Origin: Caballeronia sp. LZ062
Lineage (GTDB): Bacteria; Pseudomonadota; Gammaproteobacteria; Burkholderiales; Burkholderiaceae
Length of the DNA: 64,000 bases
Assembly (NCBI RefSeq): GCF_031450785.1
Contig: NZ_JARTWB010000001.1
Coordinates: 1,178,001-1,242,000, forward strand
Direction: 5' to 3'
Shown here: piece by piece, positions 30,893 to 56,699 of the stretch
Layout: every line of letters begins with the position of its first letter
How positions within the stretch are numbered: the stretch's first letter is position 1
Notes under the pieces: generated by a model
Seen by the model: only the letters and a program-made list of their open reading frames with translations
Database searches by the model: none
Told to the model about the DNA's origin: nothing
Position numbers and translations under genes: made by a program

Positions 30893-30904
30893 CTGTCTAT
30901 ACAG
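30893..30904. promoter_or_regulatory. HutC operator, distal (hutU)
   Basis: CTGTCTATACAG (CTGTATAGACAG on the other strand), an imperfect palindrome matching YTGTATAKACAR shared by all four hut sites in this window. Confidence 0.72.
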
Positions 30905-30957
30905 CTTGCGCTGCCGCAGCGCTGCGCGACGTCGGGATTTCCCCAATACAACGCAAG

Positions 30958-30969
30958 TTGTATATACAA
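30958..30969. promoter_or_regulatory. HutC operator, proximal (hutU)
   Basis: Perfect palindrome TTGTATATACAA, 44 bases ahead of the hutU start and centred 65 bases from the distal site. Closest of the four to the TGTATATACA core known for HutC in pseudomonads. Confidence 0.78.
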
Positions 30970-31012: not shown

Positions 31013-32686
31013 GTGACGTCGTCCTCCCGTATTCGCGATACCCAGATCCGCGCGCCGCGCGGCGCCCAGCTCAATGCGAAAAGCTGGCTGACCGAAGCGC
31101 CGCTGCGCATGTTGATGAATAACCTGGACCCGGACGTCGCCGAGAATCCGAACGAACTCGTCGTCTACGGCGGCATCGGCCGGGCGGCGCGCGATTGGGC
31201 CTGCTACGACAAGATCGTCGAGACGCTCAAGCGGCTCGAAGCCGACGAGACGCTGTTGATCCAGTCGGGCAAGCCGGTCGGCGTGTTTCGCACGCACGAG
31301 AACGCGCCGCGCGTGCTCATCGCGAATTCGAATCTGGTGCCGCATTGGGCGAACTGGGAGCACTTCAACGCGCTCGACGCGAAAGGTCTCGCCATGTACG
31401 GCCAGATGACGGCGGGAAGCTGGATCTATATCGGCAGTCAGGGCATCGTGCAGGGCACGTATGAGACGTTCGTCGAGGCGGGACGGCAGCATTACGGCGG
31501 CAATCTCAAGGGGCGCTGGGTGCTCACGGCCGGGCTCGGCGGGATGGGCGGCGCGCAGCCGCTCGCCGCGACGCTCGCGGGTGCGTGCTCGCTGAATATT
31601 GAATGCCAGCAGAGCCGCATCGACTTCCGTCTCAAAACGCGTTATGTCGATGAACAAGCCAGCGATCTCGACGATGCTCTCGCGCGTATCGCCCGCTACA
31701 CGTCGGAGGGCCGCGCGGTGTCGGTCGCATTGTGCGCGAACGCCGCCGACGTCCTGCCCGAGCTGGTCAGGCGCGGCGTGCGCCCGGACCTCGTCACCGA
31801 TCAGACGAGCGCGCATGACCCACTGAACGGCTACTTGCCGCGAGGCTGGACGTGGACGCAATACCGTGATCGCGCGCAAAGCGATCCGGCGGCGACCGTC
31901 AAGGCCGCGAAGCAGTCGATGGCCGAACACGTGCGCGCAATGCTCGCGTTCCGTGAGCAGGGCGTGCCGACCTTTGACTACGGCAACAACATCCGCCAGA
32001 TGGCCAAGGATGAAGGCGTCGAGAATGCCTTCGATTTCCCCGGCTTCGTGCCCGCGTATATCCGGCCGTTGTTCTGCCGCGGCGTCGGGCCGTTCCGCTG
32101 GGCGGCGCTGTCGGGCGATCCCGAAGACATCTACAAGACCGACGCCAAGGTCAAGGAACTGATCGCCGACGACGCGCATTTGCATCGCTGGCTCGACATG
32201 GCGCGCGAGCGCATCCGCTTTCAGGGCTTGCCGGCGCGCATCTGCTGGGTCGGGCTGGGTCAGCGGGCGAAGCTCGGCCTCGCGTTCAACGAGATGGTGC
32301 GCAGCGGCGAGTTGTCCGCGCCGGTCGTGATCGGGCGGGACCATCTGGATTCGGGGTCCGTCGCGAGTCCGAATCGCGAAACGGAGGCGATGAAGGACGG
32401 CTCGGACGCCGTGTCCGACTGGCCGCTGCTGAACGCGCTGCTGAACACGGCGAGCGGCGCGACGTGGGTATCGATCCACCATGGCGGCGGCGTCGGCATG
32501 GGCTTTTCGCAGCACGCTGGCGTCGTGATCGTCTGCGACGGCAGCCGCGAAGCCGACGCACGCATTGCACGCGTGCTGCACAACGATCCGGCGACGGGTG
32601 TCATGCGCCACGCGGACGCCGGCTATGACTCTGCAATCGAATGCGCGCGCGAGCAAAACCTCGATCTGCCGATGATCGCGCGATGA
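31013..32686 (+). CDS. hutU: Urocanate hydratase
   Basis: 557 residues. Second step of histidine degradation: urocanate to 4-imidazolone-5-propionate, using tightly bound NAD+ as electrophile. Seen: [12 protein letters not shown] near the N-terminus, the NAD-binding [26 protein letters not shown] segment, and the active-site Cys in [10 protein letters not shown]. The GTG start at 31013 is supported by AGGAG. hutI follows with an ATGA overlap. It lies about 17 kb from hutH, although these genes are normally adjacent; both loci carry matching HutC sites. Confidence 0.96.
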
Positions 32687-33903
32687 GCACGCTCTGGCAT
32701 CACTTCCACGCGGCAACGATGACGGGCGGCAAGTATTCGGTCATCGAAGACGCGGCGATGTTGACGGACGCCCGGCGCATTGCGTGGATCGGTGCGCGCG
32801 CCGACGCGCCGCGCGAGGTGGATTGCGAGCACATCGATTTGGGCGGCGCCTGGGTGACGCCTGGGCTGATCGATTGCCATACGCATCTCGTTTTCGGCGG
32901 CGATCGCAGCGGCGAATTCGAGGCGCGCCTGGAAGGCGCCAGCTACGCGGAGATCGCGGCGCGCGGCGGCGGCATCGCGAGCACGGTTCGGGCGACGCGC
33001 GAAGCGAGCGAGGACGCATTGTTCGACGCGGCCCGGTCCCGCGCGCTCGCTCTCATGCGCGATGGCGTGACGACGCTCGAAGTCAAATCGGGCTACGGTC
33101 TGGACCTGGCGAACGAACGCAAGATGCTGCGCGTGGCGCGGCGTCTCGCCGGCACGCTGCCGCTCACCGTGCGGACAACGTGCCTCGCGGCGCACGCGTT
33201 GCCGGCCGAATATGCGGGGCGGGCGGACGATTACATCGCGTATGTCTGCGAAACCATGCTGCCGGCGCTGGTGGACGAGCATCTCGTCGATGCCGTCGAT
33301 GCCTTCTGCGAACATCTCGCGTTCTCGCCGCAGCAAGTGGAGCGCGTGTTTCAGGCCGCGCGCAATCTGGGCGTGCCGGTGAAGCTGCACGCGGAGCAGT
33401 TGTCGTCGTTGCGCGGCGCGACGCTCGCGGCGAAGTATCAGGCTTTATCGGCGGATCATCTCGAATACATGACGGAGGACGACGCCATAGCGATGGCGCG
33501 CGCCGGCACGGTCTCCGTGCTGTTGCCGGGCGCGTTCTACATGCTGCGCGAAACGCAAGTGCCGCCTGTCGATGCACTGCGGCGGCACGGTGTGCCGATT
33601 GCCCTCGCGAGCGACCTGAATCCGGGCACGTCGCCGGCGCTGTCCCTGCGGATGATGTTGAACATGGGTTGCACGCTGTTCCGGCTGACGCCGGAGGAGG
33701 CGCTTGCCGGCGTGACGATTCACGCGGCGCAGGCACTCGGCTTGAAGTGCTCGCACGGCTCGCTGGAAGCGGGCAAGGCGGCCGATTTCGTGGCCTGGCG
33801 AATCAATCGGCCTGCGGAACTGGCGTATTGGCTCGGCGGCGCGCTGCCGAATCGGGTGGTGCGAAACGGCGAAGAGATTGCGTTCGATACGCCGACTCAA
33901 TGA
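32683..33903 (+). CDS. hutI: Imidazolonepropionase
   Basis: 406-residue amidohydrolase converting 4-imidazolone-5-propionate to N-formimidoyl-L-glutamate. Metal ligands: His66 and His68 (DCHTHLVF), His in VKLHAEQLS, Asp in [10 protein letters not shown]. Substrate contacts [12 protein letters not shown] and [10 protein letters not shown] are present. ATG overlaps the hutU stop (ATGA), so the pair is translationally coupled. The next pathway enzyme (HutF or HutG) is not encoded here. Confidence 0.96.
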
Positions 33904-50760: not shown

Positions 50761-50772
50761 CTGTATAGACAA
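50761..50772. promoter_or_regulatory. HutC operator, distal (hutH)
   Basis: CTGTATAGACAA, one mismatch from a perfect palindrome of the YTGTATAKACAR motif, 11 bases after the stop of the GNAT gene. Confidence 0.75.
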
Positions 50773-50880: not shown

Positions 50881-52428
50881 ATGATCACGCTGACGCCCGG
50901 AAAACTCACGCTGCCGCAACTGCGCCGCATCGCGCGCGGTTCCGATTCGCTGCGCCTCGATCCCGCGAGCTTTCCCGCTATCGACGCGAGCGCCCGCGCG
51001 GTCGCTGCCATTGCCGCAAAGGGCTATCCGGCGTACGGCATCAATACGGGCTTCGGGCGGCTCGCGAACACGCATATTCCCGCGGAGCAACTCGAACTGT
51101 TGCAGCGCAATCTGGTGCTGTCGCACGCGGTGGGCGTGGGCGAACCGATGTCGCGTCCGGTCGTGCGGCTGCTCATGGCGCTCAAGCTGTCGAGCCTCGG
51201 GCGCGGCCATTCGGGCATCCGCCGCGAAGTGATCGAGGCGCTCGTCACGCTCTTCAACGCTGACGTGCTGCCGATCATTCCGGTAAAGGGCTCGGTCGGC
51301 GCATCCGGCGATCTTTCGCCGCTCGCGCACATGTCGACGGTGCTGCTCGGCATCGGCGAAGTCACGATTCGCGGCGAACGCGCGAGCGCGCTCGACGGTC
51401 TCGCGGTCGCTGGCCTCAAGCCGCTGACGCTGCAGGCCAAGGAAGGACTCGCGCTGCTCAACGGCACGCAGGCTTCCGCGGCGCTGGCGTTGTATCACCT
51501 CTTTGCCATCGAGGACTTGTTCCGCACCGGGCTCGTCGCGGGTGCGCTGTCGGTGGATGCGGCCGCAGGCTCGGTCGTGCCGTTCGATGCGCGCATCCAC
51601 GAACTGCGCGGGCATCGCGGACAGATCGACGCCGCAGCCGCGTATCGCGCGTTGCTCGCGGGCTCGGGCATCAATCTGTCGCATGCGGATTGCGAAAAGG
51701 TGCAGGACCCGTACAGCCTGCGCTGCCAGCCGCAAGTGATGGGCGCGTGCCTCGACCAGATGCGCCACGCCGCCGACGTCCTGCTGATCGAAGCGAACGC
51801 CGTCTCCGACAATCCGCTTATCTTCCCGGAGACCGGCGAAGTGCTGTCAGGCGGCAACTTCCACGCTGAACCGGTTGCTTTCGCCGCCGACAATCTCGCG
51901 CTCGCCGCTGCTGAAATCGGCGCGCTGGCGGAGCGGCGCATCGCGCTGCTGATCGACGCCACGCTGTCCGGCCTGCCGCCGTTTCTCGTGCGCGACGGCG
52001 GCGTCAACTCCGGCTTCATGATCGCGCATGTGACGGCGGCCGCGCTCGCTTCCGAGAACAAGACGCTGGCGCATCCCGCTTCCGTCGATTCGCTGCCCAC
52101 TTCCGCGAATCAGGAAGATCACGTTTCGATGGCCACGTTCGCTGCGCGCAAGCTCGGCGATATCGCGAGCAACACGGCCAACATTCTCGCCATCGAGTTG
52201 CTCGCGGCGGCGCAGGGCGTCGATCTGCGCGCGCCGCACAAGACGAGCGCGCCGCTCATCGAGGTGATGAACACGCTGCGCGCGCACGTGCCGCACTACG
52301 ACCTGGACCGATACTTCGCGCCGGACATCGCGGCCATCGCGAAGCTGGTCGAACAAGGCGTCATCGCGAGGCATAGCCCGTTCGCGTTCGCATCCGAAGC
52401 ATTCGAGCAAGCGGACGCGAGCGCATGA
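50881..52428 (+). CDS. hutH: Histidine ammonia-lyase
   Basis: 515 residues. First step of histidine use: histidine to urocanate and ammonia. The MIO cofactor forms from Ala141-Ser142-Gly143 in [14 protein letters not shown]. Also [17 protein letters not shown] and EDHVSMAT, all conserved. ATG 50881. Its stop overlaps hutC by ATGA. Heads the hutHCD cluster. Confidence 0.97.
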
Positions 52429-53120
52429 ACACGCCCGCGTATCAGGAGATCAAGGACTACATCCTGCAGCGCATTCATATCGGCGAGTGGCGCGAGGGCG
52501 ATCAGGTGCCCTCGGAAAACGAGCTGGCGCGCGAATTCAAGGTCGCGCGCATGACCGTCAACCGCGCGCTGCGCGAACTGACGGCCGAACAGGTGCTCAC
52601 GCGCGTGCAAGGCGCGGGGACGTTCGTCGCGCAGCCGAAGTACGCGTCGACGCTCGTCGAGATTCGCAGCATTTCCGACGAAATCGCTGCGCGCGGCCAT
52701 GCGTATCGTGCGCAAGTGCTGCATCTGGGCGCATCCATCGTCGACGAGGCGCTCGCCGCTGAGATGCAGCTCGCGCTCGGCAGGCCGGTGTTTCATTCGC
52801 GCGTGCTGCACTTCGAGAACGACGAGCCGGTGCAGCTGGAAGAACGTTACGTGAACCCGGCGCTCGCGCCGGAGTACGCGCGGCAGGATTTCACGACGAT
52901 CACGCCGAACCAGTACCTGATGATCGCCGCCCCGCTTCAGCGCGTGGAGTACCGGATCGAGGCGTCCGTGCCATCACCGGAAATCCGCGAGGCGCTCGCG
53001 ATGGGCGTCCACGAGCCGTGTCTCTTGCTGCATCGGCGCACGTGGTCGCGGGATGCGGTCGCGTCTGTCGCGAACCTGTGGCATCCCGGCGACCGCTATC
53101 AATTCACCGGGCATTTCTGA
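52425..53120 (+). CDS. hutC: Histidine utilisation repressor
   Basis: 231 residues: GntR winged HTH (about 5-72; [28 protein letters not shown]) and UTRA effector domain (about 90-230). Family members are induced by urocanate. Inside the operon it controls, so autoregulated. Four matching operators (two before hutU, two before hutH) make both hut loci its predicted targets. ATGA overlap with hutH. Confidence 0.95.
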
Positions 53121-53121
53121 C

Positions 53122-53697
53122 GTGACGATCATTCCTGCGGCTTCGCTCATCGACGTGCCGTGGAAGAACGGCGGCGGCATCACGCGCGAGATTGCGGCGG
53201 GGCCGCCGGGCGCGTCGCTCGATGCGTTCGCGTGGCGCTTGTCGATTGCCGATGTATCGTCCGACGGCGCTTTTTCGGTGTTTCCGGGCGTCGATCGCGT
53301 GCTCGTGCTGCTGGACGGCGTAGGGATGCGGCTCGCCGAAGCGGGTGGCCGGGAGCATCGGCTGGACCAACCGCTCGCGATGGCGCGCTTCGCCGGTGAA
53401 ACGCCGATTAGCGCGAGTCTGATCAACGGACCGACGCGCGATTTCAACGTGATGGTGCGGCGCGACCGGGCGCGCACGTCGGTGTGCGTCCGGCGCGCCG
53501 GGCGTCATGAACTGGCGCGGGCGCACGAATTGACATTCGTCTACTGCGCACGCGGGCGGGTGAGCATCGCTTGCGCCGACGGCTCGCGTGCGGTGCTCGA
53601 TGTCGGCGATACCGTGCGCGTCGAGCAGCCGTGCGCTGTTGAAGCTACAAGCGATGCGGCGTGGCTCGTCATCGGCATCGAGGAGATACGAGCTTGA
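53122..53697 (+). CDS. hutD: HutD family protein
   Basis: 191 residues, bicupin fold: WKNGGGITREIAAGPPGA, FAWRLSIADVSSDGAFSVFPGVDR and NVMVRRDR are the family signatures. HutD tunes histidine utilisation, perhaps by binding formylglutamate or limiting urocanate build-up. GTG at 53122 follows the hutC stop by one base. Its own stop overlaps the TTG of the hutF relic (TTGA), keeping the ancestral coupling. Confidence 0.93.
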   Translation: MTIIPAASLIDVPWKNGGGITREIAAGPPGASLDAFAWRLSIADVSSDGAFSVFPGVDRVLVLLDGVGMRLAEAGGREHRLDQPLAMARFAGETPISASLINGPTRDFNVMVRRDRARTSVCVRRAGRHELARAHELTFVYCARGRVSIACADGSRAVLDVGDTVRVEQPCAVEATSDAAWLVIGIEEIRA

Positions 53698-53956
53698 TAC
53701 CGTTCTTCGCGGAATACGCGCGCCTGCCGGATGGCTGGCGGCGCAACGTGCTGATGGAATGGGACGACGATGGCGTGCTCACAGGCGTCGAGTGGGACAG
53801 CGTCGTTCCCACTCACATGGACGCCAGCGCATGCCGCCGGTTGCCGCGAGCCGAGCGGTCGCCGGACTGTGCCTGACCTCGGAGGCGAATCTAGGCGGCG
53901 GCTTCTTTCCGGCGCGCGAGGGCTTTCGGCCGACCAATTCGATTGTTGCTCGTTGA
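53694..53956 (+). pseudogene. hutF: hutF (formimidoylglutamate deiminase) remnant
   Basis: The first about 37 codons read as a HutF N-terminus (FFAEYARLPDGWRRNVLMEWDD), starting at a TTG that overlaps the hutD stop. Near 53805 the frame jumps to sequence matching the later HutF core (THMDASACRRL). About 53842-53848 there is a one-base frameshift, after which the next frame gives SRAVAGLCLTSEANLGGGFFPA, a conserved HutF segment, then unrelated sequence and a stop at 53956. Normal HutF is about 450 residues, so roughly 240 internal codons (including the metal-binding HxH) and the C-terminal 120 or so are gone. Cannot encode an active enzyme. Confidence 0.85.
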
Positions 53957-54094
53957 ACAAAAATATTTCGTGAGAATTGGGGTTTCCCCTAGGTCGCAGT
54001 CCTCCTACACTTGTCGTCAAGCGAAGGAAATCAGAAAGTGCTTAAAAGCTTCTGAGTTCTGTTCGATCTCAAAACAAGATTACTGGAGGTCATC

Positions 54095-54415
54095 ATGATC
54101 AAGTCATTCGTTCCGGCACTCGTTATCGCTTCGGCTCTGGCCGCCCCGACTTTCGCGTTCGCGCAAAGCAACGCGCCCGTCACGCGCGCTCAGGTCCGCG
54201 CGGAACTGGCCCAACTGGAAAAGGCTGGTTACAACCCGTCGCAAGACCGCGTGAGCTATCCGCAAAACCTGCAAGCCGCTCAAGCGCGTGTGAACGCCGA
54301 GCAAGGCGCGGTGGCAGAAACGTCGTACGGTCCCTCGTCCGCCGGTACGGCGCAATCGGGCGCTCGCTCGGCTGTGTCGATGTCGGATCGCAACTCGGTC
54401 TACTTCGGCCACTAA
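54095..54415 (+). CDS. DUF4148 exported protein
   Basis: 106 residues. Signal peptide cleaved after AFA near residue 23, then the DUF4148 pattern TRAQVRAELAQLEKAGYNPSQDRVSYPQNLQAAQARV (in part), with a Ser/Gly-rich tail. Small periplasmic protein typical of Burkholderia, often stress-induced; function unknown. GGAGG before the ATG, AT-rich promoter region upstream, strong terminator downstream: likely a highly expressed single gene. Confidence 0.92.
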   Translation: MIKSFVPALVIASALAAPTFAFAQSNAPVTRAQVRAELAQLEKAGYNPSQDRVSYPQNLQAAQARVNAEQGAVAETSYGPSSAGTAQSGARSAVSMSDRNSVYFGH

Positions 54416-54518
54416 GCCGGTGTACATCGACCCGCAGCTCTCTCGACGCAGCGGGTAGCAGGCAGCAGGGCAGTAGAAGTAACAGCAGTGCGAGAAGTGC
54501 AGTAAGCAGTAGAGCATG

Positions 54519-54561
54519 AAAAAAGCGCCGGCCGCGTTGATCGCGGCCGGCGCTTTTTTTT
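54519..54561 (+). terminator. Rho-independent terminator after the DUF4148 gene
   Basis: Sixteen-bp stem (54521-54536 with 54542-54557), 5-base loop and an eight-T tract. Confidence 0.95.
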
Positions 54562-54643
54562 GCGCCCAACGCGAACGCGCCGAAAGTCACGCGCTTGCAA
54601 GCGAAATCCTGCACGCTGTGTGCTTTCGTCCGGACCTTTGCCG

Positions 54644-55414
54644 ATGCAGATCATCACACAGTGCCTTCTATTCTGCGCCGCTGTGGCGCTCGGCGTGGCG
54701 TCGTCGCCCGTGCGCGCTGGCAGCTCCGACGCGCTCTGGCAGATCGTCCACGACCGCTGCGTGCCCGCCGCCGAGGGCGCGCCCGTCGAGCAGCCGTGCG
54801 CCGAGGTGAACCGCGCGGGCGGCTATGCGGTGCTGAAGGATCTCGTCGGCGTCGCGCAGTATCTGCTGATTCCGACCGCACGCGTGAGCGGCATCGAGAG
54901 TCCCGCGCTGCTGGAACCGGAGACGCCAAATTACTGGCGCGATGCATGGAATGCGCGCCATTACGTCGACGACGCGCTGCGCCGCCTCTTGCCGCGCGAC
55001 GAACTGTCGCTGGCGGTCAATTCGGCGAGCGGACGCACGCAGAACCAGCTGCATATTCATATCGACTGTCTGGCGGACGACGTGGCCGAGACGCTGCGCG
55101 AAACGGGGCCGGGCATCGGCACCCAATGGAAGCCGCTGCCTGTGCGGCTGCGCGGACACAGGTATCGCGCGATGCGCATCGACGACGCGGACCTTTCCCG
55201 CACCGATCCGTTCAGGCTGCTGGCCGCGACTGTCGCGCAGGAAGGCGGCTCCATGGGCGATCAGACCTTGCTACTGGTCGGCGGACAGCGTAGCGACGGC
55301 GCACCGGCGTTCTTTCTGCTCAACGATAGCGTCGGTCCGGGCGATCTCGCGTCGTCGGAAGAGCTACAGGATCACACGTGCGCGCTGGCCGGACGCACGA
55401 TCATCAAACCGTGA
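54644..55414 (+). CDS. cdh: CDP-diacylglycerol diphosphatase
   Basis: 256 residues. Hydrolyses CDP-diacylglycerol to phosphatidate and CMP at the inner membrane. N-terminal hydrophobic anchor (IITQCLLFCAAVALGVASS), then LWQIVHDRCVP, YLLIPTARVSGIES, NYWRDAWNAR and the HIT-like QLHIHIDC active site, all Cdh signatures. ATG 54644 opens the anchor; an upstream in-frame extension overlaps the terminator region and is not credible. Confidence 0.92.
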   Translation: MQIITQCLLFCAAVALGVASSPVRAGSSDALWQIVHDRCVPAAEGAPVEQPCAEVNRAGGYAVLKDLVGVAQYLLIPTARVSGIESPALLEPETPNYWRDAWNARHYVDDALRRLLPRDELSLAVNSASGRTQNQLHIHIDCLADDVAETLRETGPGIGTQWKPLPVRLRGHRYRAMRIDDADLSRTDPFRLLAATVAQEGGSMGDQTLLLVGGQRSDGAPAFFLLNDSVGPGDLASSEELQDHTCALAGRTIIKP

Positions 55415-55424
55415 CTGCGCCGGA

Positions 55425-56699
55425 TCAGCAATCGAAGCCCTGAAACACCGCATCGTCAGGGCCGATGGATGCGGGCGATTTCCACGTCGCGTCGCGCATC
55501 GAATGACGCACCTGATTCTCGACGCCCAGCAGCACCGCGAACAGCGCCATGCGCACGGCGATGCCGTTGTCCGTCTGCCGGAAGATAGCGAGCCGCAAAT
55601 CGTGATTCAGGTCGGTCGCGAGATCGTTCGCGCCGGGACGGCTGTCACGCGGCAGCGGATGCATGATCAGCGTGTCGCGCCCGCATGCCTCGTCGACGAG
55701 CGCCTGATTGATCTGGAAGTCCGGCGTGTAACCTTCGATGGACTCGTCAGCGAACCGCTCTTTCTGGATGCGCGTCGCGTAGACGACGTCCGCACCGGCG
55801 AGGCCCGCGCGCAGATCGCTCGTCTGCTCGATCACGTGGCCGCCGCGCGCGATGCGGTCGAGGATATGCGCCGGCATCTCCAGCGACTGGGGCGAAACGA
55901 GCGTGAACTTCAGCCCTTTGTACAGCGACAGCAACTTGGCGAGCGAGTGCACCGTGCGGCCGTATTTCAGGTCGCCGACCATCACGATGTGCGCGCCGTC
56001 CACGATCTTGCCCAGACGCGAAAACTCGCGCTGAACCGTGTACAGATCGAGCAGCGCCTGGCTCGGATGCTCGCCCGGTCCGTCGCCCGCGTTGATCACC
56101 GGCACGTTCGTCGCCCGCGCGAATTCCGCTACCGAGCCCTGTTCGGGATGCCGCACGACGATCGCGTCGGCGTAACCGCTGATGACGCGGCTCGTGTCGT
56201 AGATGGATTCGCCCTTCGCCATCGACGAAAACGTGAAGCCTGTCGTGTCGCACACCGAGCCGCCCAGCCGGCAGAACGCCGCGCCGAAGCTCACGCGCGT
56301 GCGCGTGCTGGCCTCGAAGAACAGATTGGCGAGCACCGCGCCTTCCAGCACGCGCGTGATTTTCCGGCGGCGCGCGATGGGCTGCATCATGTCGGCGGTG
56401 CGAAAAAGGGCCTCGGCAGAATCGCGCGAGAACTGGTCGATGGACAGCAACTGCGGCCGCCCTTCAAATCCGATGGAATATGCGCTCTGCGTAGACGTGC
56501 CGCCTTCCGGCATCCCCGCGAGAATCTCGCCGACATAGCGCCCCGCGATTTCCGGCATGACGCGCGATTCGGGCGATTCGTCCGGCAGCAGCCACGTGTC
56601 CAGCGCCCGCCGCGATACGCCGATGCGCGATGCAAACGCATCGCGGGTCATGTTCAGACGCCGCATGGCGTCGCGAAGCAGAGTTTGTTGCTGAGTCAC
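55425..56699 (-). CDS. Aspartate carbamoyltransferase with N-terminal helix-turn-helix extension
   Basis: 424 residues, about 110 longer than E. coli PyrB. Residues 1-60 look like an XRE-type HTH (LLRDAMRRLNMTRDAFASRIGVSRRALDTWLLP). The catalytic part (about 80-400) has the carbamoyl-phosphate loop STRTR (131-135), Lys162 in MAKGES (the 80s loop), HPSQ (211-214) and HPLPRD. All catalytic residues are kept. It is monocistronic, not beside pyrC or pyrR, so it may be a second or specialised ATCase. Whether the HTH binds DNA, or is a structural relic, is unknown. Product: N-carbamoyl-aspartate. Confidence 0.85.
   Translation of the reverse strand: MTQQQTLLRDAMRRLNMTRDAFASRIGVSRRALDTWLLPDESPESRVMPEIAGRYVGEILAGMPEGGTSTQSAYSIGFEGRPQLLSIDQFSRDSAEALFRTADMMQPIARRRKITRVLEGAVLANLFFEASTRTRVSFGAAFCRLGGSVCDTTGFTFSSMAKGESIYDTSRVISGYADAIVVRHPEQGSVAEFARATNVPVINAGDGPGEHPSQALLDLYTVQREFSRLGKIVDGAHIVMVGDLKYGRTVHSLAKLLSLYKGLKFTLVSPQSLEMPAHILDRIARGGHVIEQTSDLRAGLAGADVVYATRIQKERFADESIEGYTPDFQINQALVDEACGRDTLIMHPLPRDSRPGANDLATDLNHDLRLAIFRQTDNGIAVRMALFAVLLGVENQVRHSMRDATWKSPASIGPDDAVFQGFDC

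What the first reader, a model, noticed from the sequence alone, without database searches (positions are those of the whole stretch)
53694..53956. hutF is decayed to a remnant directly after hutD
The reading frame after hutD begins with a HutF-like N-terminus, jumps over roughly 240 codons to a later HutF segment (THMDASACRRL), then shifts frame by one base into SRAVAGLCLTSEANLG. The order of the pieces matches HutF and the TTGA coupling with hutD remains, so this is an in-place internal deletion plus frameshift, not chance. HutI makes formimidoylglutamate; with HutF dead, the strain must use another hutF copy, a HutG-type formimidoylglutamase, or cannot finish histidine use.
Basis: partly seen in the sequence, partly recalled or inferred. 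Interest (0 to 1): 0.72.

Follow-up and report, generated by a model that had tools for sequence, protein, structure and literature searches.

The report
Dead hutF backed by second copy
A bacterium's histidine-breakdown gene hutF has been reduced to a scrap in its usual place, and its neighbour hutG is gone too, but a separate hutF-hutG pair that sits with its own importer and regulator elsewhere in the genome probably does the job instead.

Summary
Confirmed. No HutF metal ligand survives. Four collinear relatives (88-89% identical) have both genes here. The genome is not hutF-less: an intact hutF-hutG pair lies on contig C3 in an IclR-SBP-permease-ATPase-hutD-hutF-hutG operon. hutH, hutU and hutI occur only in the window, under HutC-like operators; none was found at the C3 operon, which has its own conserved palindrome. 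Of 33 Caballeronia genomes comparable at this site, five lost hutF, and five of five carry the operon; but seven eroding or fragmented genomes, left out of that count, have no hutF match at all. The operon also occurs in another Burkholderiaceae genus and on a Klebsiella plasmid. Most likely histidine breakdown still runs, its last two steps supplied by an accessory formimidoylglutamate import-and-degradation operon. Gene content is shown; substrate, inducer and growth are inferred. No raw reads were available.

The parts
53694..53810 (+). 5' remnant of hutF (about 38 codons, TTG start overlapping the hutD stop)
   Evidence: HutF N-terminal profile hits; alignment to four relatives
53809..53811 (+). 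junction of deletion 1 (708 nt missing relative to each of four relatives, in frame by itself)
   Evidence: coordinates; blocks
53811..53919 (+). internal remnant of hutF (THMDAS...SEANLGGGFFPAR), with a one-base loss near 53840 that shifts the frame
53920..53940 (+). junction of deletion 2: 18-21 nt of unassigned sequence in place of 1317-1342 nt (hutF 3' part plus all of hutG)
53122..53697 (+). hutD, intact
   Evidence: Pfam HutD E 1.9e-53
52425..53120 (+). hutC repressor, intact
   Evidence: TIGR02018 over cut-off
50881..52428 (+). hutH, intact, only match in the genome
31043..32674 (+). hutU, only match in the genome (profile match range)
32743..33873 (+). hutI, only copy over the cut-off (profile match range; six weak hits elsewhere)
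30894..30968 (.). two HutC-operator-like sites (TGTCTATACA, TGTATATACA) before hutU
   Evidence: consensus TGTA-N2-TACA from passages of PMC12977541
50762..50871 (.). two HutC-operator-like sites (TGTATAGACA twice) before hutH
   Evidence: same sites in relatives
54095..54415 (+). DUF4148 gene whose conserved upstream region now directly follows the remnant

Best explanation
The stretch is a hutF pseudogene in its ancestral place. A 708-nt in-frame deletion removed the catalytic core, a one-base loss broke the frame, and a second deletion removed the 3' third of hutF together with hutG (the order of events is not known). A working protein cannot be made from it. The pathway is most likely not dead. 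HutH, HutU and HutI from the window make formimidoylglutamate, and HutF and HutG encoded on contig C3 finish it. The C3 pair belongs to an accessory operon (IclR regulator, amino-acid ABC importer, hutD, hutF, hutG) that probably imports and degrades formimidoylglutamate (or N-formylglutamate). Its presence made the HutC-linked hutF-hutG redundant and allowed their decay. Shown: the lesions, the gene content, the collinear relatives with both genes, and that no HutC-like site with at most 1 mismatch was found in the 19-kb stretch around the C3 operon. Inferred: the operon's substrate, its induction by a pathway intermediate through IclR, and growth on histidine.
For: Remnant and lesions. Collinearity with four relatives over window 28720 or later (where the fetched stretch begins) to 53802-53813. 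Decay: TEANLGDG is identical in 54 of 54 full-length HutF rows, but the remnant reads SEANLGGG; private changes in the remnant are 9 nonsynonymous and 4 synonymous, against 2 and 10 summed over four relatives (Fisher p 0.015). The C3 hutF scores 612 bits (cut-off 413) and its hutG 346 (cut-off 279); C3 HutF aligns with solved HutF 3mdu through the LHSH, HSLRAV, HIHIAEQ, VHATH and GSDSH stretches. Operon parts. Of 33 comparable Caballeronia genomes, 5 lost hutF here and 5 of 5 carry the IclR operon; 28 keep it, of which 5 have a second hutF (Fisher p 0.0011). HutC-like sites lie before hutU and hutH and none with at most 1 mismatch in the stretch around the C3 operon. A palindrome lies upstream of IclR in 13 of 14 operon loci; in this genome its only exact hit is there, with one 1-mismatch hit elsewhere on C1.
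Against: No expression, enzyme or growth data. The association has exceptions: adding the 7 eroding or fragmented genomes with no hutF match at E 1e-60 takes p from 0.0011 to 0.13 (from 0.0002 to 0.039 if only the IclR operon counts as the second copy), and one of them, G056, keeps near-complete hutH and hutC. Three genomes carry the operon and still keep hutF at the old site. The genomes are related, so Fisher p values are too small; on the hutH-hutC tree the loss needs 3 changes and starred branches force only 2. In G604 the palindrome-IclR unit sits inside a full hut cluster with hutI, so inducer and substrate may not be formimidoylglutamate alone. The P. aeruginosa transporter PA3176, in the comparable operon, was reported to affect use of N-acetyl-glutamate (passage of PMC2542419), so an N-acyl-glutamate substrate is possible.
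Confidence: 0.85

Rival explanations
1. The strain has lost the end of the histidine pathway: it accumulates formimidoylglutamate or cannot use histidine, because the C3 operon is not expressed when histidine is degraded.
For: No HutC-operator-like site with at most 1 mismatch was found around the C3 operon, which has a different regulator family. Formimidoylglutamate is described as a toxic intermediate, and loss of a HutC site at hutF caused growth defects on histidine in P. fluorescens (passages of PMC12977541).
Against: hutH, hutU and hutI are open and single copy; keeping them with a toxic dead end seems unlikely (inference). The four other genomes that lost this hutF also have hutF in the same kind of operon.
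Confidence: 0.1
2. Assembly or sequencing artefact: the true genome has an intact hutF-hutG at this place.
For: Raw reads are not available here, and no second strain of the species was found.
Against: Two separate large deletions, a single-base loss and substitutions at invariant residues are unlikely to come from one error. Other genomes show different lesions at the same site. The window lies in a 3-contig assembly of 98.88% completeness.
Confidence: 0.02
3. The remnant has a new role, as a small protein (53694-53876, 60 codons from the TTG) or as transcribed leader for the DUF4148 gene.
For: The TTGA overlap with hutD persists and the frame from the TTG stays open for 60 codons.
Against: Excess of amino-acid-changing private substitutions (9 against 4 synonymous), loss of frame, loss of the catalytic core. 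Pfam gives only a below-cut-off HutF_N hit and a chance-level DUF4185 hit (E 0.091).
Confidence: 0.03

Closest known systems
HutF of Pseudomonas (formimidoylglutamate deiminase; PDB 3mdu, 4rdv)
   Same: The C3 copy aligns over residues 7-462 of 466, E 5e-142, with the conserved catalytic stretches present.
   Different: The window remnant keeps only two short segments and no metal ligand; the C3 copy lies in an IclR/ABC operon and not beside hutC.
hutH-hutC-hutD-hutF-hutG locus of Caballeronia relatives
   Same: Same gene order and flanks, 88-89% DNA identity over hutC-hutD and the start of hutF.
   Different: hutF reduced to two pieces, hutG absent.
Pseudomonas aeruginosa operon of IclR-type HutR, hutE (PA3175) and PA3176
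   Same: An operon with a regulator, an enzyme acting on formimidoylglutamate and a transporter gene; HutR is reported as a FIGLU-inducible IclR-type regulator co-transcribed with hutE (passages of PMC12977541; operon make-up in passages of PMC2542419).
   Different: The Caballeronia operon uses HutF plus HutG and a binding-protein ABC importer; in P. aeruginosa the enzyme is HutE and the transporter a GltS-type symporter that was reported to affect N-acetyl-glutamate use. HutR's sequence was not compared here.
IclR-SBP-permease-ATPase-hutF-hutG gene set on Klebsiella pneumoniae plasmid NZ_CP092394.1
   Same: Same gene order (without hutD) and a perfect 7-bp inverted repeat ATTCCCT-N5-AGGGAAT upstream of IclR.
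   Different: Proteins 46-73% identical; lies between IS903B and IS6 transposase genes on an IncR plasmid.

Membership tests
HutF (window remnant as a working HutF) | Full-length profile match over the TIGR02022 cut-off | tested here: not met
   22.3 bits against 413
HutF (window remnant as a working HutF) | Metal ligands of the amidohydrolase core (HxH, H206, H232/E235, H269, D320 in 3mdu numbering; ligand roles recalled) | tested here: not met
   By counting on the alignment, deletion 1 ends just before T271 and deletion 2 starts before D320
HutF (window remnant as descent) | Homologous segments in HutF order, at the place where relatives hold hutF | tested here: met
HutF (C3 copy) | TIGR02022 / NF006680 over cut-off | tested here: met
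   612.8 bits (cut-off 413.05) and 861.6 bits (cut-off 810)
HutF (C3 copy) | Formimidoylglutamate deiminase activity | not testable with these tools
   needs an enzyme assay
HutG N-formylglutamate deformylase (C3 copy) | TIGR02017 over cut-off | tested here: met
   346.1 bits (cut-off 278.75)
HutC regulon (hutU and hutH in the window) | TGTA-N2-TACA-type operator upstream | tested here: met
   two sites each with at most 1 mismatch
HutC regulon (C3 operon) | TGTA-N2-TACA-type operator upstream | tested here: not met
   none with at most 1 mismatch in L044; one 2-mismatch match inside hutD and one 7 kb beyond the operon
HutG-type formimidoylglutamase (one-step bypass) | TIGR01227 over cut-off in this genome | tested here: not met
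   126 bits (cut-off 229); the protein is over the agmatinase cut-off, 212.5 against 174.3
IclR-controlled formimidoylglutamate import operon | Importer binds formimidoylglutamate; IclR responds to it | not testable with these tools
   best solved relatives of the binding protein are glutamine- and other amino-acid-binding proteins

The most novel reading that the evidence does not exclude
The IclR-ABC-(hutD)-hutF-hutG operon is a mobile module for scavenging extracellular formimidoylglutamate, with its own regulator and conserved operator. Where it arrives, it takes over the last two steps of histidine breakdown and the HutC-controlled copies decay repeatedly, so that one pathway becomes split between two regulators and two replicons.
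Probability: 0.45. Interest if true: 0.6.

Novelty: new variant of a known kind. Interest (0 to 1): 0.42.

Why it matters
Pseudogenes are common, but here the decay can be traced to a likely cause: a second copy under a different regulator. In Pseudomonas the control of hutF is reported as important because its substrate is toxic (passages of PMC12977541), so a pathway whose first three steps appear to answer to HutC and whose last two sit beside an IclR regulator is a direct test of how bacteria keep such a split pathway balanced. The accessory operon, found in Caballeronia, in genomes of another genus of the same family and on a Klebsiella plasmid, also points to formimidoylglutamate as a nutrient that bacteria may take up from outside, which can be tested.

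Tried and rejected
Sequencing or assembly error as the cause: rejected as unlikely (several lesions), but not excluded without reads. A formimidoylglutamase (TIGR01227) as bypass: rejected, because the only hit is an agmatinase-type protein. Other HutF-profile hits on C2: an 8-oxoguanine deaminase and a guanine deaminase. The idea that the strain lost histidine use outright: kept as a minor rival. Searches that gave nothing: in the plasmid collection the only record covering at least 80% of window 52425-54700 is Caballeronia sp. M1242, whose length equals contig G049:C2, with hutF intact there (records of the own or a very near genome may be left out). The strain name of the window genome was not found. 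Two frames given to the family search (L059:1501-2388 and L002:1501-2697 on +) were the wrong strand and gave no hit; the right frames were searched. The frames called SBPperm2 and ABCatp2 were wrong fusions; two searches gave the real IclR, SBP and permease frames.

Papers: ten searches (open-licence PMC papers only) listed no paper that, by title or start of abstract, describes this operon or this decay. Several lists were cut: 10 of 133, 10 of 23, 15 of 180. Passages found by term search were read in five papers (PMC5343134, PMC12977541, PMC8222616, PMC2542419, PMC4447125); none was read in full.

Rows dropped before counts: of 58 genus genomes (own included), 34 went into the site tree and 33 into the Fisher table (G044, which has no hutD-hutF-hutG at the site, was left out). 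The 24 left out are 13 genomes with hutF in a different full cluster (one of them, G021, also has a distant IclR-operon copy) and 11 eroding or fragmentary genomes. Seven of these 11 have no hutF match at E 1e-60, though G019 keeps a hutF fragment at the site; the test with the seven is. The count of substitutions used only codons identical among the compared genomes and left out the codon at the frameshift.

Full report
What was checked. Window 53694-53956 was compared with HutF profiles, with the rest of its own genome and with relatives. The window is C1:1178001-1242000.

The frame opening at the TTG that overlaps the hutD stop (TTGA, 53694-53697) matches HutF at the N-terminus (best E 1.5e-9; Pfam HutF_N 23.2 bits, just under its cut-off of 25). 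The other frame matches HutF at profile positions 277-308 (best E 9.3e-8), and a search of the whole genome found the same segment (E 9.5e-5). Against G048, G049, G039 and G041, where hutF is full length, the window follows the relatives to about 53809, misses 708 nt in each of the four, continues to 53919 with one base missing near 53840, and then loses homology until 53938 (G048) or 53941 (the other three).

The second break removes 1317-1342 nt of relative sequence (coordinates), which in the relatives holds the 3' part of hutF and all of hutG. What follows is the conserved upstream region of a DUF4148 gene. So this locus lost both last steps of the pathway. By counting on the alignment of the C3 HutF with the solved Pseudomonas enzyme 3mdu, the first deletion takes the LHSH, HSLRAV and HIHIAEQ stretches and the histidine of VHATH, and the second takes GSDSH; the roles of these residues as metal ligands are recalled, not tested.

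It is decay and not chance. The window is collinear with the four relatives from 28720 or later (where the fetched stretches begin) to 53802-53813 at about 89-91% identity in the long blocks. The motif TEANLGDG is identical in 54 of 54 full-length HutF rows from the genus, whereas the remnant has SEANLGGG. Counting changes found only in one genome at codons the others share, the remnant has 9 nonsynonymous and 4 synonymous, and the four relatives together 2 and 10 (Fisher p 0.015). In hutC the same count for this genome is 1 and 15. hutD is less clear: 12 and 14 for this genome against 11 and 21 for the four relatives together.

The rest of the pathway. hutU (31043-32674) and hutI (32743-33873) lie 17 kb upstream of hutH (50881-52428); hutU and hutH have one match each in the genome and hutI one over its cut-off. 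One intact hutF (612 bits, cut-off 413) and one intact N-formylglutamate deformylase hutG (346, cut-off 279) lie side by side on contig C3 at 181912-184159. Other HutF-like hits on C2 are an 8-oxoguanine deaminase and a guanine deaminase, and the only formimidoylglutamase-like hit is an agmatinase-type protein.

The C3 operon. In order on one strand: an IclR-family regulator, a family-3 solute-binding protein, an ABC permease, an ATPase, hutD, hutF, hutG. In Caballeronia sp. Lep1P3 (its plasmid p1 has the length of contig G040:C3) the same seven genes are annotated in this order. HutC-operator-like sites (TGTA-N2-TACA; consensus from passages of PMC12977541) lie at 30894 and 30959 before hutU and at 50762 and 50862 before hutH; these are 4 of 8 matches with up to 2 mismatches in the window, against 2.15 expected, and the only ones with at most 1. 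Sites at the same places recur in the relatives. In the 19-kb stretch around the C3 operon there are two matches with 2 mismatches, one inside hutD and one 7 kb beyond the operon, and none with at most 1. Instead, a palindrome ATTCCCA-N5-TGGGAAT (one mismatch in this genome) lies 73 nt before the IclR start. It was read from an alignment of ten loci and then found with at most 2 mismatches once in each of 13 of 14 operon loci, the miss being the distant G021. The four loci from outside the genus match it exactly. In 630,000 bases of loci without the operon there were 10 such matches. In this genome the only exact hit of the degenerate pattern is at the operon, with one 1-mismatch hit at C1:273595. 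It recurs as ATTCCCT-N5-AGGGAAT before the IclR gene on the Klebsiella plasmid, and exactly in G604.

Distribution in the genus. Of 58 genomes searched, 51 have a HutF match at E 1e-60 or better. At the hutH-hutC site, 33 genomes are comparable: 28 have long hutF and hutG matches and 5 have lost hutF (G000, G007, G013, G038, G040). In G013 hutH-hutC and hutD onward lie on two contigs. All 5 carry the IclR operon; of the 28, three carry it too (G017, G025, G039) and two carry another full hut cluster (G002, G006). Fisher p is 0.0011. Against this: 7 eroding or fragmented genomes have no hutF match at E 1e-60, and with them p is 0.13, or 0.039 if only the IclR operon counts; one of them, G056, still has near-complete hutH and hutC matches. 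The lesions differ: G007, G013 and G038 keep hutG at the site, G013 keeps a fragment matching codons 370-433, G038 a 38-bp 5' piece, and G040 neither hutF nor hutG. The hutH-hutC tree needs 3 changes for the loss and starred branches force 2, so at least two events are likely. In G038 the operon shows hutF but no hutG or adjoining hutD in the fetched stretch, and hutG survives at the old site: the two loci complement each other.

Origin of the second copy. In the HutF tree, the copies at the old site form one group (28 rows, support 100/99), and nine of the ten operon copies form another (100/99); the tenth, G021, is a long branch. The operon copy is therefore not a recent duplicate of the lost gene. 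The same kind of operon occurs in G127, G160, G226 and G231, from one other genus of the family (G231 without a hutD hit), where another hutF is also present, and on a Klebsiella plasmid between transposase genes. Close IclR relatives are rare: 2 of 398 genomes drawn across the phylum at E 1e-55, one of them the own genome. The other, G604, has the IclR unit within a full hut cluster with hutI and without an ATPase hit, so the ancestral inducer need not be formimidoylglutamate.

How it most likely works. HutH, HutU and HutI convert histidine to formimidoylglutamate under HutC control; the C3 HutF and HutG convert that to glutamate. Because the operon has an importer and lacks the first three enzymes, its own role is most simply uptake and breakdown of formimidoylglutamate or N-formylglutamate, with IclR as the sensor. 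A parallel is the P. aeruginosa operon of an IclR-type regulator, reported as FIGLU-inducible, with hutE and a transporter (passages); that transporter was reported to affect N-acetyl-glutamate use, which leaves an N-acyl-glutamate substrate open. Substrate, inducer and the flow of the pathway are inferences. Verdict: the pseudogene is real and in itself ordinary; the takeover by an accessory operon with its own regulator is the interesting part.

Noticed in passing
window 55425-56699 (-): Aspartate carbamoyltransferase gene (NF008853, 791 bits, cut-off 560) that is missing at this place in G048, G049, G039 and G041 but lies within continuous alignments in G040 and G007, so probably lost in those four.
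   Followed up: partly
L236 2985-8231 (Klebsiella pneumoniae plasmid NZ_CP092394.1): The IclR-ABC-hutF-hutG gene set between IS903B and IS6 transposase genes; 3 of 33 matching plasmid records have one place covering at least 80% of it.
   Followed up: partly
L056 and L067 (G038): Patchwork pathway: hutF found only in the IclR operon, hutG only at the old hutC site.
   Followed up: no
L199 (G056): A 6.2 Mb genome with near-complete hutH and hutC matches but no hutF match at E 1e-60: possibly a truncated histidine pathway.
   Followed up: no
window 31043-33873 and 50881-53697: hutU-hutI and hutH-hutC-hutD are 17 kb apart, with ABC transporter, D-aminopeptidase and other genes between them; the arrangement is collinear in the four nearest relatives.
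   Followed up: partly
window 53122-53697: hutD of this genome has 12 nonsynonymous against 14 synonymous private changes, perhaps slightly relaxed.
   Followed up: no
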